DNA from: an uncultured Collinsella sp.
GTDB lineage: Bacteria > Actinomycetota > Coriobacteriia > Coriobacteriales > Coriobacteriaceae
NCBI GenBank assembly: GCA_934654605.1
Contig: CAKUGH010000065.1
Span: 1-7,656 of the forward strand
Reading direction: 5' to 3'
Length of the DNA stretch: 7,656 nucleotides
The position numbers were made by a program, and so were the translations under genes. Positions 1 to 7,656 of this stretch are shown here, piece by piece (positions within the stretch are counted from its first letter, which is position 1; each line of letters begins with the position of its first letter). A model generated the notes under the pieces. It was not told the origin of the DNA. It made no database searches and saw only the letters and a program-made list of their open reading frames with translations.

Positions 1-2008
1 AGATAAATGTGCCGTAGGTAGTGCCGCGACGGTTGCTCTCGCTAATCACCTGCTCCTCGCCGCGGCGCACCCTTCCGCTCTCGTCGAGCGAAAGCTGCGA
101 GGCGGTCATCCAATAGTAATCGTCATCTTTACGCAGGTCCTCGTCTCGATGCTTTCCGACCACGGCGATAAAACTCTCGTTGTAGCGATCCGAACCCGAG
201 ACGCTGCCCGACTTAACGTCGCTGATCCACACCTGCTCTATACCCTTGTGGTCATGCTTGTTGCTGCTGTTGTATTGCTGACCGCTCATGCTCATGGTTC
301 CGACCATGGACCCCAAGCCCTGGGCACCGCTCTGCGCCGTGTTGCAGGCAAAGTCGCGGAACACATCGCCGCCCACGAGCACCTCGTCGACCGCCGGCTG
401 CTCGGACAGGCCGTCAAGGTTGGCAGTGGCAAGGGCAATAGGCGCCAAGGTGCACGGATAGCGCTTATCCTGAGCGCTATCCTTCCATGCGCTGTTGGGC
501 ACATGCATCAGTCCATAGGAGGCGAGGAGCCCGTCTCTGTATTCCTTGCAATCGGAAAGTTTGAACTCGCCAGACTCCGAGTCAAAATACGCGTAGCGGT
601 ACAGCGCGCCGTACAGCTCCTTGCTGCCGTCATAAGCGTCGTAATCAAAAGCGCTGCGTTGCCAGTCATAGCCCGCAAGAATAAGGCCCGTGACGGTTTC
701 ACCCGTCTTCTTTCCTTCTTCATCGTAGGCGGCAAACGTGCCGAACGTCGCATTCGCAGCGACCATGGTCTTGCCGTTCGCGGAGAGGGAGATTGCGCCC
801 GCGTCACCCAGAGCATCGACATGGACGAGCGCACCCTTGGATGCATCCCACGAGAACAGCTCGCAATGCGTCGACTTATCAATATTCTTCTTGCCGTAGG
901 GTGCCGAGACCACGATGGCGAGGTCATCGCAAAAATCGCGATCGAGGTCGCCGGCCGCTAGCGAAACGACAGGAGCTGACTGAAGCTGCGTCCAGGAGTC
1001 GTTCCCGCCCTTGTTGTGCGTGGTGTAGTCCGCGGCGTTACCGGCATCGATCTTGACGACGCTCTGTTTCCAGTTGCCGCCCTCCAAGTCGTACATGTCG
1101 ACTACAGCCTTGCGCACGCCGTTCTCGTCGACATAGCAGCCCGCGTAGACAAAAAGCTCGTCGACGCCGTCGCCATCGACATCGCCCGCCTCGACATCAA
1201 AGACGGCGTCGTGCTCTTGCAGGTAACCGGCGTTCAGATACTTAAAACGGCTTCCGTCCATCATATTGGTGTTGACCGTCACCGGCAGGTGTGTGTCGAG
1301 AGTGCGCGTACGCCCGTTGCTAAACGAGTAGAGGACCAGCTCAACCTTTCCGGCGTATGACTTGCCGTCAATCGTGGTAGAAGAACTGTCGCCGTAGGCA
1401 CGAAGTTCGGCAACGCGGCTCTTTTTGCCCGTGCTGGCGTCGCTGCAGAACTCAACACTCGTGGCGTGAATGCCCGAGAAACCGTTATTGTCGTTGGCGA
1501 GTACTGTTGAGGACTCATTGTTGCTTAGGTACGACCAGGTGCCGCCACCGTAGTCGCTATGCTTGTAGAGATCGCTGTTCGTATCGAAGTTGTTGACGTT
1601 TTGCCAGAACTTTGCGGCGCCCCACACACTTCCATAGCCATCGGTGAGTTTGCTGCTGCCGCCAATGTCACCGCGCTCGACGTTCTCGAGCTTGTCGCGC
1701 AGAGTGTAGCGATTGCCATGGCTACCGTTAGCTGCCATATAGACCTCGCTGCGCGTGGCAAACGTCGTGGGGGTATCGGTGGAATAGGGGCCAACGGTAT
1801 CGGCCGGAATGTCCTCGTTCGTGCCCAGGCCCAGGTCGCTATAGTCCTGCTCGGTCATATCGGTGATTGCGGGCGTGTCCGCCGCCTGAGCAACCTGGGG
1901 TGTGGCCGTGAAGCAGGCGACGCTCGTGGCGATCAACGCAGCAAGCGCCGCCGTCCCAACAAGCGGGATTTTCGACAACCGACGAATGTAGGGGTGTGGA
2001 ACGTGCAT
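1..2008 (-). CDS. Secreted FG-GAP/VCBS-like repeat protein, C-terminus cut by the window edge
   Basis: The minus-strand frame from the ATG at 2008 stays open for 669 codons to the left edge. The protein is probably exported: residues 1-42 look like a signal peptide, with R9-R10 and K13, a hydrophobic core at about 14-31 and a likely signal peptidase I site AQA|A at 40-43. C32 lacks a proper lipobox (SVAC), so a lipoprotein is less likely. Acidic loops typical of beta-propeller FG-GAP/VCBS repeats occur at D276-x-D278-x-D280-G-x-D283 (DVDGDGVDEL) and D354-x-D356-x-D358-x-x-D361. A weaker one lies at 530-545 (NLDG then VDEVLVGG). In this family such loops bind calcium between propeller blades. 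The rest is rich in Tyr, Asp, Asn and Ser, as in extracellular proteins. A GAGG sequence six bases upstream supports the start. No catalytic domain is recognised, so substrate and partner are unknown; adhesion or polysaccharide binding would be a guess. Confidence 0.85.
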   Translation of the reverse strand, partial: MHVPHPYIRRLSKIPLVGTAALAALIATSVACFTATPQVAQAADTPAITDMTEQDYSDLGLGTNEDIPADTVGPYSTDTPTTFATRSEVYMAANGSHGNRYTLRDKLENVERGDIGGSSKLTDGYGSVWGAAKFWQNVNNFDTNSDLYKHSDYGGGTWSYLSNNESSTVLANDNNGFSGIHATSVEFCSDASTGKKSRVAELRAYGDSSSTTIDGKSYAGKVELVLYSFSNGRTRTLDTHLPVTVNTNMMDGSRFKYLNAGYLQEHDAVFDVEAGDVDGDGVDELFVYAGCYVDENGVRKAVVDMYDLEGGNWKQSVVKIDAGNAADYTTHNKGGNDSWTQLQSAPVVSLAAGDLDRDFCDDLAIVVSAPYGKKNIDKSTHCELFSWDASKGALVHVDALGDAGAISLSANGKTMVAANATFGTFAAYDEEGKKTGETVTGLILAGYDWQRSAFDYDAYDGSKELYGALYRYAYFDSESGEFKLSDCKEYRDGLLASYGLMHVPNSAWKDSAQDKRYPCTLAPIALATANLDGLSEQPAVDEVLVGGDVFRDFACNTAQSGAQGLGSMVGTMSMSGQQYNSSNKHDHKGIEQVWISDVKSGSVSGSDRYNESFIAVVGKHRDEDLRKDDDYYWMTASQLSLDESGRVRRGEEQVISESNRRGTTYGTFI

Positions 2009-2014
2009 GGGGGA

Positions 2015-2018
2015 CCTC
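2015..2018 (-). promoter_or_regulatory. Ribosome binding site of the secreted FG-GAP-like protein
   Basis: On the minus strand the start is preceded by GCGAGGTCCCCC and then ATG. The GAGG core lies six bases before the start codon. This fixes the start at 2008, and the signal peptide then begins a few residues later. Confidence 0.6.
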
Positions 2019-2040
2019 GCTTTACTCGAGTGGAGTCGGC

Positions 2041-2058
2041 TCATTTTTGCAAATGATA
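2041..2058 (-). promoter_or_regulatory. Candidate -10 box overlapped by a palindrome
   Basis: On the minus strand TATCAT (2053-2058, five of six matches to TATAAT) lies 45 bases before the start of the secreted protein. It overlaps the perfect inverted repeat TCATTT-TTGC-AAATGA (2041-2056), which could be an operator. No good -35 box is found at 16-18 bases; the position holds CACGTG. Sigma-70 use with an activator, or a different promoter, is possible. The palindrome is seen directly; the promoter is inferred. Confidence 0.3.
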
Positions 2059-2077: not shown

Positions 2078-2112
2078 CGTGTCTCATTTTCGCCAACGGC
2101 GTGTCTCATTTT
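2078..2112. repeat. Two 13-bp direct repeats, 22 bp apart, upstream of the secreted protein
   Basis: CGTGTCTCATTTT occurs exactly at 2078-2090 and 2100-2112. A shorter relative (CTCATTTTT) lies at 2040-2048. The 22-bp spacing is about two helical turns, so both copies face the same side of the DNA, as regulator sites often do. The sequence also resembles one arm of the downstream 62-bp array (CGTGTCCCACTTT at about 2323), so these may instead be decayed array units. Confidence 0.5.
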
Positions 2113-2162: not shown

Positions 2163-2595
2163 TGCGACACATATTCCGCAGAGCTCCTCATCGGGAAACG
2201 GCATCCCACTTTGAGCCCCGATTCTGGGACGCACTTTCCACTTAGGCCCTCAACGGGAAACCACGTCCCATTTTGAGCCCCGATTCCGGGACGCACTTTC
2301 CTGTTGTGGCTCGTCGGGAAAGCGTGTCCCACTTTGGAGGCTGATTGTGGGACGCAGTTTCCCGTTGGAGCGCCTTTGGGAAAGTGCATCCCGTTTCTTG
2401 ACCGAATAATGGGACGCAATTTCCCGTTGGAACGCCTTTGGGAAAGTGTGTCCCACTTCGAACGCCCAGAGTGGGACGCACTTTCCGCAAAGCACCTCAA
2501 CGGGAAACTACGTCCCATTCCAAAGGCAAATTCCGGGACGCATTTTCCGAAAGCCTGCCCATCCGGAAAGCCCGTCCCACTTTGGACGCATCCGG
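2163..2595. repeat. Tandem array of seven 62-bp units, each a pair of inverted 15-bp motifs
   Basis: Seven units begin at about 2163, 2225, 2287, 2348, 2410, 2472 and 2534; all are 62 bp except the third (61 bp). Each holds a left motif close to GGGACGCAcTTTCCC and, 11-15 bases later, its inverse GGGAAAGTGCGTCCC, so each unit can fold into a hairpin. In the best units the stem extends through CGTTG and CAACG. A spacer of about 17 bases (for example ACTTTGAGCCCCGATTC) follows. A right arm can also pair with the left arm of the next unit, so the array is a chain of about 14 motifs in alternating orientation, on average 31 bp apart. The first unit is the most decayed. The layout resembles REP/BIME or REPIN clusters, but no RAYT transposase is present. 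The unit length is not a multiple of three, which argues against coding. Its function is unknown. Confidence 0.9.
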
Positions 2596-2638
2596 GCACT
2601 GAACCATCGACCTATCAGGCCTCCCATCAATAAAGAGG

Positions 2639-2767
2639 CGTCCTCCCGGGCGGCGGCGCACGAATTTCATCGCGAGTTCCGCACGCAAAGAAGGCCACTT
2701 AATGTGGCCTTCTTCTTGCGCAGGACTGTAAAGCAGGGAACTTCGTGCCCCGACGCCCGGGAGGACG
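2639..2767. repeat. 129-bp nested inverted repeat enclosing a terminator hairpin
   Basis: The outer arms CGTCCTCCCGGGCG (2639-2652) and CGCCCGGGAGGACG (2754-2767) are perfect 14-bp inverted partners. Moving inward, five unpaired bases on each side are followed by GCACGAA (2658-2664) with TTCGTGC (2742-2748). Next come GTTCC (2676-2680) with GGAAC (2737-2741), and then the central hairpin at 2684-2720. All arms nest about one centre near 2701, so the whole can form one long irregular stem-loop or a cruciform. It begins about 43 bp past the flavodoxin stop codon, in its 3' untranslated region. It could be a MITE with terminal inverted repeats, although no flanking target duplication is obvious, or a structured RNA ending in a terminator. 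Confidence 0.75.
2684..2720 (-). terminator. Rho-independent terminator-like hairpin after the flavodoxin gene
   Basis: AGAAGGCCAC (2689-2698) and GTGGCCTTCT (2704-2713) form a perfect 10-bp stem with the five-base loop TTAAT. CGCAA (2684-2688) and TTGCG (2716-2720) add five pairs beyond a two-base bulge. On the minus strand the stem runs into CTTCTTTGCG, a short T-rich tail, about 90 bp after the flavodoxin stop. The plus strand also has a T-rich side (TTCTTCTT), so it may act in both directions, but no plus-strand gene ends here. Confidence 0.75.
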
Positions 2768-2809
2768 TTACATTTAGAAAGATGGGCCGACCGCCGTCAG
2801 CGATGGGAG

Positions 2810-3361
2810 CTACTCCCCCAGCACGGCCTTTTTGGCGGCTGCAGCCATGTTGTCCAAATCTTCCTTAGTGGGATGATCCTTTGCGGCGACCCAGTTGTCG
2901 AGCAGCAACTTAGCGCGGGCGTTGTCGGGATCCTGCTCGAGCATGGCCTCGTAGCGTTGCTTGACCGCGGGGCCCATCTTGCCCTGGCACATGGCCCAGC
3001 CCGCAAGCTCGGCGTCATCGGCCAAATTGGAGGTCACGCGGTCGATAATCTGCTGGTAATAGCTCTGGTCGGCACCAAAGCCGCAGGTACCAAAGAGGAA
3101 AACGCGCTTGCCGTGCAAGGCAGAGAGCAACGCCGCGACCGAAGGCGTGCATGCGCCCTTGTCGCACCAAAAACCGACGAGCACCGTGTCAGCTGCGCTG
3201 GCACCCTGCGCCTCGAGCGCAACCTGCTCGGCATCCGCATCGTCGCTCAACGCCGCGGCGTGGACAAACTCAACGCCCGCAGCCTGCAGAGCGCGCTTGA
3301 TCGCGCCCGAAACCATCCTGGTATTACCGCTCTTGCTGTTAACCACCAAAGAGCACGTCAT
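2810..3361 (-). CDS. Small flavodoxin-family protein
   Basis: This 183-residue protein has a flavodoxin-like fold. The first strand LVVNS (5-9) runs into the phosphate-binding loop S9-K10-S11-G12-N13-T14, the FMN-phosphate signature. The second loop region VLVGFWCDKGACTP (60-73), with W65, and the strand-loop RVFLFGTCGFG (86-96) fit the FMN isoalloxazine contacts. A helical C-terminal extension (about 131-183) goes beyond a minimal flavodoxin. It is expected to be cytosolic and to carry electrons through bound FMN to an unknown partner. Similar short proteins in gut anaerobes are called flavodoxin family protein, and some are named BilS, the partner of bilirubin reductase BilR. No bilR is present here, so that identity is only a possibility. 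ATG at 3361 has GAGG ten bases upstream; an in-frame GTG at 3367 (two residues longer, four bases from the same GAGG) is an alternative. It appears to be transcribed alone. Confidence 0.88.
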   Translation of the reverse strand: MTCSLVVNSKSGNTRMVSGAIKRALQAAGVEFVHAAALSDDADAEQVALEAQGASAADTVLVGFWCDKGACTPSVAALLSALHGKRVFLFGTCGFGADQSYYQQIIDRVTSNLADDAELAGWAMCQGKMGPAVKQRYEAMLEQDPDNARAKLLLDNWVAAKDHPTKEDLDNMAAAAKKAVLGE

Positions 3362-3420
3362 AGTCACGTTGCCTCGTTTCCCCCAAAACTAAAGCCACTA
3401 ATGCAATTTATTAGATGAAT

Positions 3421-7319: not shown

Positions 7320-7466
7320 TAAGCACCAATGCCCCGGCGCAACCAACGAGCAATACTCCACACGGGATAGAACTGTTCAGATCAATGCACCTTTACGGGT
7401 GATTTTTGGACGACGGGGTCCGGGAGGCGGCGAGGTATTTGGTAGTCGAGCGATCCCGCAGGCGAA
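7320..7466. repeat. Direct repeat copy nearest the exporter operon
   Basis: This stretch aligns without gaps to the sequence 190 bp further right. Positions 7390-7466 are identical over 77 bases, while 7331-7389 match at roughly 70 percent, and the match fades near 7320. Weak similarity (CCAGC-AAGACG near 7292) hints that the unit spans nearly all 190 bp. It lies in the leader region of the exporter operon. The offset is not a multiple of three, so it is not a protein repeat. Its function is unknown; the transcription start may lie in or near it. Confidence 0.8.
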
Positions 7467-7509
7467 GCCGAGGACCAGCGAGACGTTGCCCCATAACGCC
7501 CGAATCGCG

Positions 7510-7656
7510 GGACCCCCGATGTTTTGGCAACGCCAGCGAGCAACACAACGCACGGGATTGAATTCTTCAGATAAACGCGCCTTTACGGGTGATTTTTGGA
7601 CGACGGGGTCCGGGAGGCGGCGAGGTATTTGGTAGTCGAGCGATCCCGCAGGCGAA
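7510..7656. repeat. Second direct repeat copy, running off the window edge
   Basis: This is the partner of the copy 190 bp to its left. Its last 77 bases (7580-7656) are identical to 7390-7466 and reach exactly to the window end. It contains TTTACGGGTGATTTTTGG and then a GC-rich stretch (CGACGGGGTCCGGGAGGCGG). The stretch between the identical cores (7467-7579) contains an inverted pair CGTTGCC (7484-7490) and GGCAACG (7526-7532). No gene is recognised in 7214-7656. Confidence 0.8.

What the first reader, a model, noticed from the sequence alone, without database searches (positions are those of the whole stretch)
2163..2595. Seven-unit 62-bp array of a palindromic motif in alternating orientation
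About 14 copies of a 15-bp motif (GGGAAAGTGCGTCCC and its inverse) alternate strands in a gene-free region upstream of a secreted protein. I know of no described function for this array in Coriobacteriia. It could be a REPIN/BIME-type cluster, a multi-site protein-binding platform, or a transcribed chain of hairpins acting on the downstream gene or on the 3' end of the flavodoxin transcript.
Basis: seen in the sequence. Interest (0 to 1): 0.75.

Follow-up and report, generated by a model that had tools for sequence, protein, structure and literature searches.

The report
Phased DNA arrays with retired transposase
Gut bacteria of one Collinsella clade carry, at many spots between genes, rows of one short DNA signal that alternates direction at almost fixed spacing and is strongly conserved in place; the rows likely act as docking strips for a protein, possibly a former transposase whose cutting residues are lost in most of these genomes.

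Summary
The array is real. Window 2164-2578 holds 14 copies (one degenerate) of a 15-bp site, S-GG-AAA-N-Y-G-Y-R-T-CCC, alternating in orientation at 33- and 29-bp offsets. The family is confined to one Collinsella clade: a 48-bp dimer model finds 49-110 matches in each of 22 of 43 genus genomes and none in the other 21. Copy number at this locus varies between strains. The core is strongly conserved in place (2.7% of columns variable, spacers 29%), and partner sites do not covary, which favours sequence-specific protein recognition over a pairing RNA. Sites come mostly as whole inverted dimers, often between convergent genes; accessory genes lie inside split arrays. The same clade carries a single-copy REP-associated transposase relative (RAYT) in 21 of 22 genomes and 0 of 21 others. 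Its catalytic tyrosine is lost in 17 of 21, yet every frame is intact (median dN/dS 0.30). Best explanation: a BIME-like binding platform with this retired RAYT as predicted binder. The RAYT link rests on co-occurrence in one clade; no array lies beside its gene and binding is untested. New variant of a known kind.

The parts
2164..2578 (.). array of 14 alternating sites, period 62 bp
2164..2178 (-). site 1, degenerate, in phase
   Evidence: read; not called by the scan
2193..2207 (+). site 2
2226..2240 (-). site 3
2255..2269 (+). site 4
2288..2302 (-). site 5
2316..2330 (+). site 6
2349..2363 (-). site 7
2378..2392 (+). site 8
2411..2425 (-). site 9
2440..2454 (+). site 10
2473..2487 (-). site 11
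2502..2516 (+). site 12
2535..2549 (-). site 13
2564..2578 (+). site 14
2..2044 (-). neighbouring gene, FG-GAP protein (runs off the window); in four related loci the same gene lies between two arrays
2810..3367 (-). neighbouring gene, flavodoxin (Flavodoxin_3)

Best explanation
The array is a BIME-like row of DNA sites, conserved in place, that likely works as a phased docking platform for a sequence-specific protein, predicted to be a RAYT (REP-associated transposase relative) whose catalytic residues are lost in most of these genomes. Shown by the calls: the family, its near-fixed geometry, its confinement to one clade, strong in-place conservation of the site core, no arm-to-arm covariation, copy-number change between strains, accessory genes inside split arrays, and a single-copy RAYT that co-occurs with the arrays and keeps an intact frame although its catalytic tyrosine is gone in 17 of 21 genomes. 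Inferred: that a protein reads the sites; that the 48-bp inverted dimer is the unit read; that sites about 31 bp apart (three helical turns) let proteins line up on one face of the DNA; that the RAYT is that protein. Inferred with least support: that the platform insulates neighbouring, often convergent, genes.
For: Core columns vary in 18 of 669, spacer columns in 352 of 1204, outer flank in 260 of 1073 across 9 groups of orthologous arrays. 428 of 453 neighbour spacings are the two canonical ones within 1 bp. Of 27 arrays whose two end sites point in opposite directions, 23 are made of whole dimers and 4 are not (37 more have like ends). Middle positions of partner sites do not covary. The RAYT is at 71-100% identity in 21 of 22 array genomes; the best match in the 21 others is 41%. 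Its catalytic tyrosine is lost in 17 of 21 and the HUH motif in 11 of 21, all 21 frames intact, median dN/dS 0.30 in the lost set, while 18 of 18 other Collinsella RAYTs checked keep both. Its model matches best a solved RAYT-REP complex, 4er8. Genomes G022 and G033 have no other Y1 match and keep 70 and 60 array matches.
Against: The array genomes are one clade (RpoB 98-100% identical, others at most 92%), so array and RAYT co-occur as one event. No array site lies within about 1 kb of this RAYT. In the lost set the HTH part varies more than the Y1 part (24 of 43 columns against 45 of 140). One array genome, G032, lacks the RAYT, though its conserved upstream DNA is missing too, so an assembly gap is possible. 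Sites are recognised by their core, which biases the conservation count. The invariant core cannot exclude a hairpin with an internal loop. No binding, expression or knock-out data.
Confidence: 0.42

Rival explanations
1. The arrays are a host-maintained binding platform for gyrase, a nucleoid protein or a transcription factor and have nothing to do with the RAYT.
For: All site and spacing evidence fits any sequence-specific protein; 24 of 48 arrays lie between convergent genes, where topoisomerase action is plausible; E. coli REPs are gyrase targets (PMC3733652, passages). The RAYT has no array beside it.
Against: No candidate protein found; the family is absent from the 21 other Collinsella genomes although gyrase is universal (general knowledge).
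Confidence: 0.3
2. The arrays are leftovers of a mobile REPIN- or TIR-like family once spread by a Y1 transposase; conservation reflects recent copying, not function.
For: Inverted dimers resemble REPINs (PMC3116915, passages); other Collinsella Y1 genes have GGGAC-containing terminal repeats; a RAYT co-occurs.
Against: Conservation is seen between orthologous arrays in place, not only between copies; arrays persist where the only Y1 match is catalytically lost; in two near-complete genomes sites lie in arrays, not dispersed.
Confidence: 0.13
3. The array is transcribed and acts as a chain of RNA hairpins.
For: Neighbouring sites are inverted repeats; arrays can start within 7-60 bp of a stop codon; position 8 of the 33-bp dimer alone gave p = 0.015.
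Against: No covariation overall: 142 against 137.8 expected and 189 against 189.6; 83.5% paired against 82.8% in shuffles, reached by 92 of 500; no Rfam match; change is tolerated symmetrically on both strands.
Confidence: 0.08
4. The arrays are mainly a recombination platform through which strains gain and lose accessory genes.
For: Outer array ends around the FG-GAP gene match the ends of the undivided array in strains without it. Gene ends facing arrays have discordant neighbours in 0.41 of locus pairs (18 ends) against 0.09 (79 ends), p = 8e-6. Genes inside or beside arrays include a DUF234 ATPase, an MmeI-type enzyme and an IS3-like transposase.
Against: Loci were chosen for arrays and the ends are not independent. 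IS3-like copies are not drawn to arrays: phased sites lie by 2 of 30 fetched copies, one being the starting copy; 3 more have a single site. Homologous exchange between repeats would explain it as a side effect.
Confidence: 0.05

Closest known systems
BIME clusters of E. coli (REP and inverted REP in tandem)
   Same: inverted sites in alternating order, intergenic, often by convergent genes, tandem clusters (PMC8266576, PMC3733652, passages); copy number varies here between strains
   Different: no constant GTAG tag, no conserved pairing stem, limited to arrays, near-fixed 33/29-bp offsets; unit sequence unrelated
REPIN-RAYT systems
   Same: inverted doublet as unit; a single-copy RAYT in the same genomes
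   Different: the RAYT is not flanked by the repeat and is catalytically lost in 17 of 21
TIRYT / TIRtrons (RAYT group 1, subclass 2.1)
   Same: RAYT with C-terminal HTH; other Collinsella Y1 genes have GGGAC-containing inverted repeats; array sites read YGGGAYRC; TIR families elsewhere reported in dimers or clusters (PMC3733652, passages)
   Different: the array-clade RAYT has only isolated GGGACA motifs near it; long phased arrays and loss of catalysis were not in the passages I read; group assignment rests on domain make-up, not on a tree with reference members

Membership tests
BIME (REP clusters) | inverted palindromic units in alternating order between genes | tested here: met
BIME (REP clusters) | units tagged by GTAG or CGTC | tested here: not met
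   no constant GTAG; CGTC only where position 11 is G, about half of sites
BIME (REP clusters) | units dispersed over the genome in high numbers | tested here: not met
   exact sites 19 and 12 in two near-complete genomes, 18 of 19 and 12 of 12 in arrays
BIME (REP clusters) | gyrase binding (E. coli BIME-2) | not testable with these tools
   no binding data
REPIN-RAYT | a RAYT in the genome | tested here: met
   21 of 22 array genomes, 0 of 21 others; sub-threshold NCBIfam match, 42.6 bits against 80; best fold match 4er8
REPIN-RAYT | RAYT gene flanked by the repeat | tested here: not met
   no site by the 14 clade members examined
REPIN-RAYT | catalytically intact RAYT (HUH and tyrosine) | tested here: not met
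   intact in 4 of 21, lost in 17 of 21
TIRYT / RAYT group 1 | RAYT with C-terminal helix-turn-helix | tested here: met
   HTH_23 and related HTH models at or just under cut-off; helices in the model
TIRYT / RAYT group 1 | terminal inverted repeats with GGGGWSAS around the gene | tested here: inconclusive
   isolated GGGACA upstream in 12 of 12 clade members scanned and inverted downstream in 7 of 12; no long repeat pair
structured RNA family | compensatory change in paired arms | tested here: not met
structured RNA family | match to an Rfam family | tested here: not met
   0 matches at gathering score

The most novel reading that the evidence does not exclude
A bacterial REP system turned into host chromosome architecture: a group-1-like RAYT has given up transposition and become an array-binding protein, its repeats have become 31-bp-phased dimer lattices under selection, and these lattices mark gene borders and steer where accessory genes come and go. 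It would also supply the repeat family that RAYT group 1 lacks in the papers consulted.
Probability: 0.27. Interest if true: 0.82.

Novelty: new variant of a known kind. Interest (0 to 1): 0.62.

Why it matters
No description of this repeat system turned up in the searches, and it sits in common gut bacteria. It makes an open question directly testable: what REP/BIME-type arrays do for the host once their transposase no longer cuts. A catalytically lost but conserved RAYT in the same genomes as conserved arrays separates binding from mobility. The arrays also coincide with places where strains differ in restriction, ATPase and surface genes.

Tried and rejected
Hairpin RNA: no covariation, no Rfam match. 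Coding array: the 62-bp period is not a multiple of three and the conserved letters follow the site, not codons. IS targeting as for IS1397 (recalled; a reference title seen): phased sites by 2 of 30 IS3-like loci, one being the starting copy, single sites by 3 more. Arrays as terminators: terminator before the array at 12 of 30 gene ends, against 5 of 16 array-free convergent ends. Y1 genes as such: present in 37 of 43 genus genomes; only one subfamily separates array from other genomes. HTH as the kept part of the lost RAYT: not favoured. Spread beyond the genus: the strict pattern hits none of the 352 other genomes of the order. Terminal-repeat likeness is suggestive only: its 31 contexts are copies of about a dozen families. 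Metagenome and viral collections and the whole-database protein search were not used.

Row handling: L100 (duplicate of L005) and L004 (short) were left out of the neighbour count; L018 could not be searched as a genome. In one search RAYT frames were taken stop to stop by position and a few look mis-picked (L148, L159, L168); one search used frames anchored on the conserved start for the 21. The spacing and context counts include orthologous loci. Eight first Y1 loci had no site but one single-mismatch match in L064.

Full report
What is there. Between a flavodoxin gene (2810-3367, minus strand) and an FG-GAP protein gene (2-2044, minus strand) the window carries 14 copies of a 15-bp site in strictly alternating orientation. 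Thirteen pass a weight-matrix scan at 2193-2578 with start offsets 33 29 33 28 33 29 33 29 33 29 33 29; a fourteenth, degenerate one at 2164-2178 I read in phase from the sequence. The site consensus is S-GG-AAA-N-Y-G-Y-R-T-CCC followed by R-N-W-H-T.

A family, not a singleton. The flavodoxin protein brought 20 loci, all titled Collinsella. At this place the array ranges from none (L018) through a single site (L020) to 15 sites (L006, L017, L019). In L020 the left flank runs straight into what is the right-hand end in L010, joined at a site, as expected if repeats recombine (read by eye). A strict dimer pattern hits 21 of 43 genus genomes with 0 hits for the reversed control, and 21 of 395 genomes of the order, the same ones. 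A sequence model of the 48-bp dimer, built from 56 non-redundant dimers, finds 49-110 matches in each of 22 of 43 genomes and none in the other 21; many dimers match on both strands and 142 candidates per genome were scored. In two genomes held as near-complete contigs there are 19 and 12 exact sites (control 0 and 1), 18 of 19 and 12 of 12 inside arrays.

Geometry. In 61 sequences (window, L001-L020, L068-L107, orthologous loci included) there are 65 arrays of three or more sites, 518 sites and 453 neighbour spacings: + to - 33 (219) or 32 (3), - to + 29 (171), 28 (34) or 30 (1), together 428 of 453; about 26 slots lack a recognised site. Shuffled sequences gave 6 groups of two or more sites. 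The 33-bp offset is stiffer than the 29-bp one. Of 27 arrays whose end sites point in opposite directions, 23 run + to - (whole dimers) and 4 run - to +; 37 have like ends. With position 9 taken as centre all sites are 31 bp apart, about three helical turns (arithmetic).

Conservation in place. In 9 groups of orthologous arrays, core columns vary in 18 of 669, middle columns in 167 of 504, spacers in 352 of 1204, outer flank in 260 of 1073. An earlier count on clustered dimers gave 9 changes in 16 core columns and 132 in 18 spacer columns. Sites are recognised by their core, which biases this; but about 26 empty slots beside 518 sites are far fewer than spacer-like decay would leave (inference). 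Positions 10, 11 and 16 hold nearly only one base class, pyrimidine or purine, as expected of DNA-shape read-out (inference).

No sign of a pairing RNA. Middle positions of partner sites do not covary: 142 identities against 137.8 expected (56 dimers, p = 0.31) and 189 against 189.6 (58 dimers, p = 0.57). Paired cells are 83.5% against 82.8% in shuffles, reached by 92 of 500, and the covariation score was reached by 52 of 500; the RNAalifold covariation term is -0.11. Position 8 of the 33-bp dimer alone reached p = 0.015. The invariant core says nothing for or against pairing; a hairpin with an internal loop, as single-stranded DNA, remains possible.

Context. Of 48 arrays with a called gene on both sides, 24 lie between convergent, 17 between co-directional and 7 between divergent genes (own gene caller, orthologs included). 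A terminator precedes the array at 12 of 30 gene ends and is found at 5 of 16 array-free convergent ends. Accessory genes lie inside split arrays: flavodoxin-array-FG-GAP-array-fam3 in L006, L017, L019 and L069, but flavodoxin-array-fam3 in L003, L005, L008-L011 and L015; thiE-array-zinc-ribbon gene-array-patatin in L084, but thiE-array-patatin in L073, L090, L098 and L101 (the names thiE and patatin are my reading of the sequences). Outer array ends agree between the two forms. Gene ends facing arrays have discordant neighbours in 0.41 of locus pairs (18 ends) against 0.09 (79 ends), Mann-Whitney p = 8e-6; loci were picked for arrays and ends are not independent. Genes inside or beside arrays include a DUF234 ATPase, an MmeI-type enzyme and an IS3-like transposase.

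The transposase question. Y1 genes occur in 37 of 43 genus genomes. A tree of 45 Y1 proteins has one well-supported clade of 14, all from array genomes. Searched directly, this protein is found once at 71-100% identity in 21 of 22 array genomes, and the best match in the 21 others is 41%. The exception, G032, also lacks the upstream DNA that the 10 other genomes tested have, so an assembly gap is possible. It has a Y1 domain and HTH-like C-terminus, a sub-threshold match to NCBI's REP-associated tyrosine transposase model (42.6 bits against 80), and a predicted structure (mean pLDDT 82.8) whose best solved match is 4er8, a RAYT bound to a REP hairpin. In 17 of 21 the catalytic tyrosine is serine and in 11 of these the HUH motif is broken as well, yet all 21 frames are intact. 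dN/dS in the lost set has median 0.30 (0.19-0.52, 125 non-independent pairs); in the intact set 0.10 (5 pairs). All 18 other Collinsella RAYTs checked keep both motifs. G022 and G033 have no other Y1 match and keep 70 and 60 array matches. So arrays stay conserved where this transposase cannot cut.

What speaks against the link. The array genomes form one clade (RpoB 98-100%, others at most 92%; G034 and G036 gave no match), so the co-occurrence is one event. No array site lies within about 1 kb of the gene. In the lost set the HTH part varies more than the Y1 part (24 of 43 columns against 45 of 140). Binding is untested.

Comparison with the known (papers read in passages only). REPINs are inverted REP doublets near RAYTs (PMC3116915). 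REPs carry GTAG or CGTC tags, lie often between convergent genes, and E. coli REPs are gyrase targets (PMC3733652); BIMEs pair REP and inverted REP in tandem (PMC8266576). RAYT-like genes flanked by terminal repeats fitting GGGGWSAS are called TIRYT, some with repeat families in dimers or clusters (PMC3733652). Subclass 2.1, which takes in RAYT group 1, has a C-terminal HTH, and no REP was found near its genes (PMC6006769). Several other Collinsella Y1 genes have terminal repeats containing GGGAC, and array sites read YGGGAYRC; these contexts score nearer the array profile than background (p = 2e-5, 31 non-independent contexts), a hint that the arrays descend from such repeats. The array works like a BIME but fails the tag, dispersal and gene-flanking features, so it is filed as a new variant, not a member. 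Literature searches listed nothing that describes it.

Verdict. Real, limited to one clade, conserved in place, most likely a protein-docking array. The retired RAYT is the best candidate partner and gives a direct experiment.

Noticed in passing
window 2636-2770: A long hairpin element of about 130 nt (-89.5 kcal/mol, z -10.7). Its core pattern occurs 3-19 times in each of the 22 array genomes and once in 2 of the 43 other genomes among 65 of the family, control 0; the outer stem differs between copies but stays largely paired (by eye); the window has no Rfam match. Some copies lie as inverted pairs a few hundred bases apart. Candidate structured RNA, terminator or small mobile element.
   Followed up: partly
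window 2078-2112: Two identical 13-bp repeats (CGTGTCTCATTTT) 22 bp apart in the upstream region of the FG-GAP gene, 85% like part of an array unit.
   Followed up: no
window 7383-7656: A direct repeat of roughly 80-90 bp about 180 bp apart beyond the second ABC-transporter gene, read.
   Followed up: no
L167, L161, L142, L062, L067, L149 and other Y1 loci: Other Collinsella Y1 genes are flanked by long inverted repeats with a GGGAC core and differing arms: apparent TIRtron-like elements.
   Followed up: partly
window 2186-2590: Few stop codons in six frames over the array (11 against a mean of 23 in crude block shuffles), so long chance frames arise, such as 2084-2599 minus; probably a by-product of the motif.
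   Followed up: partly
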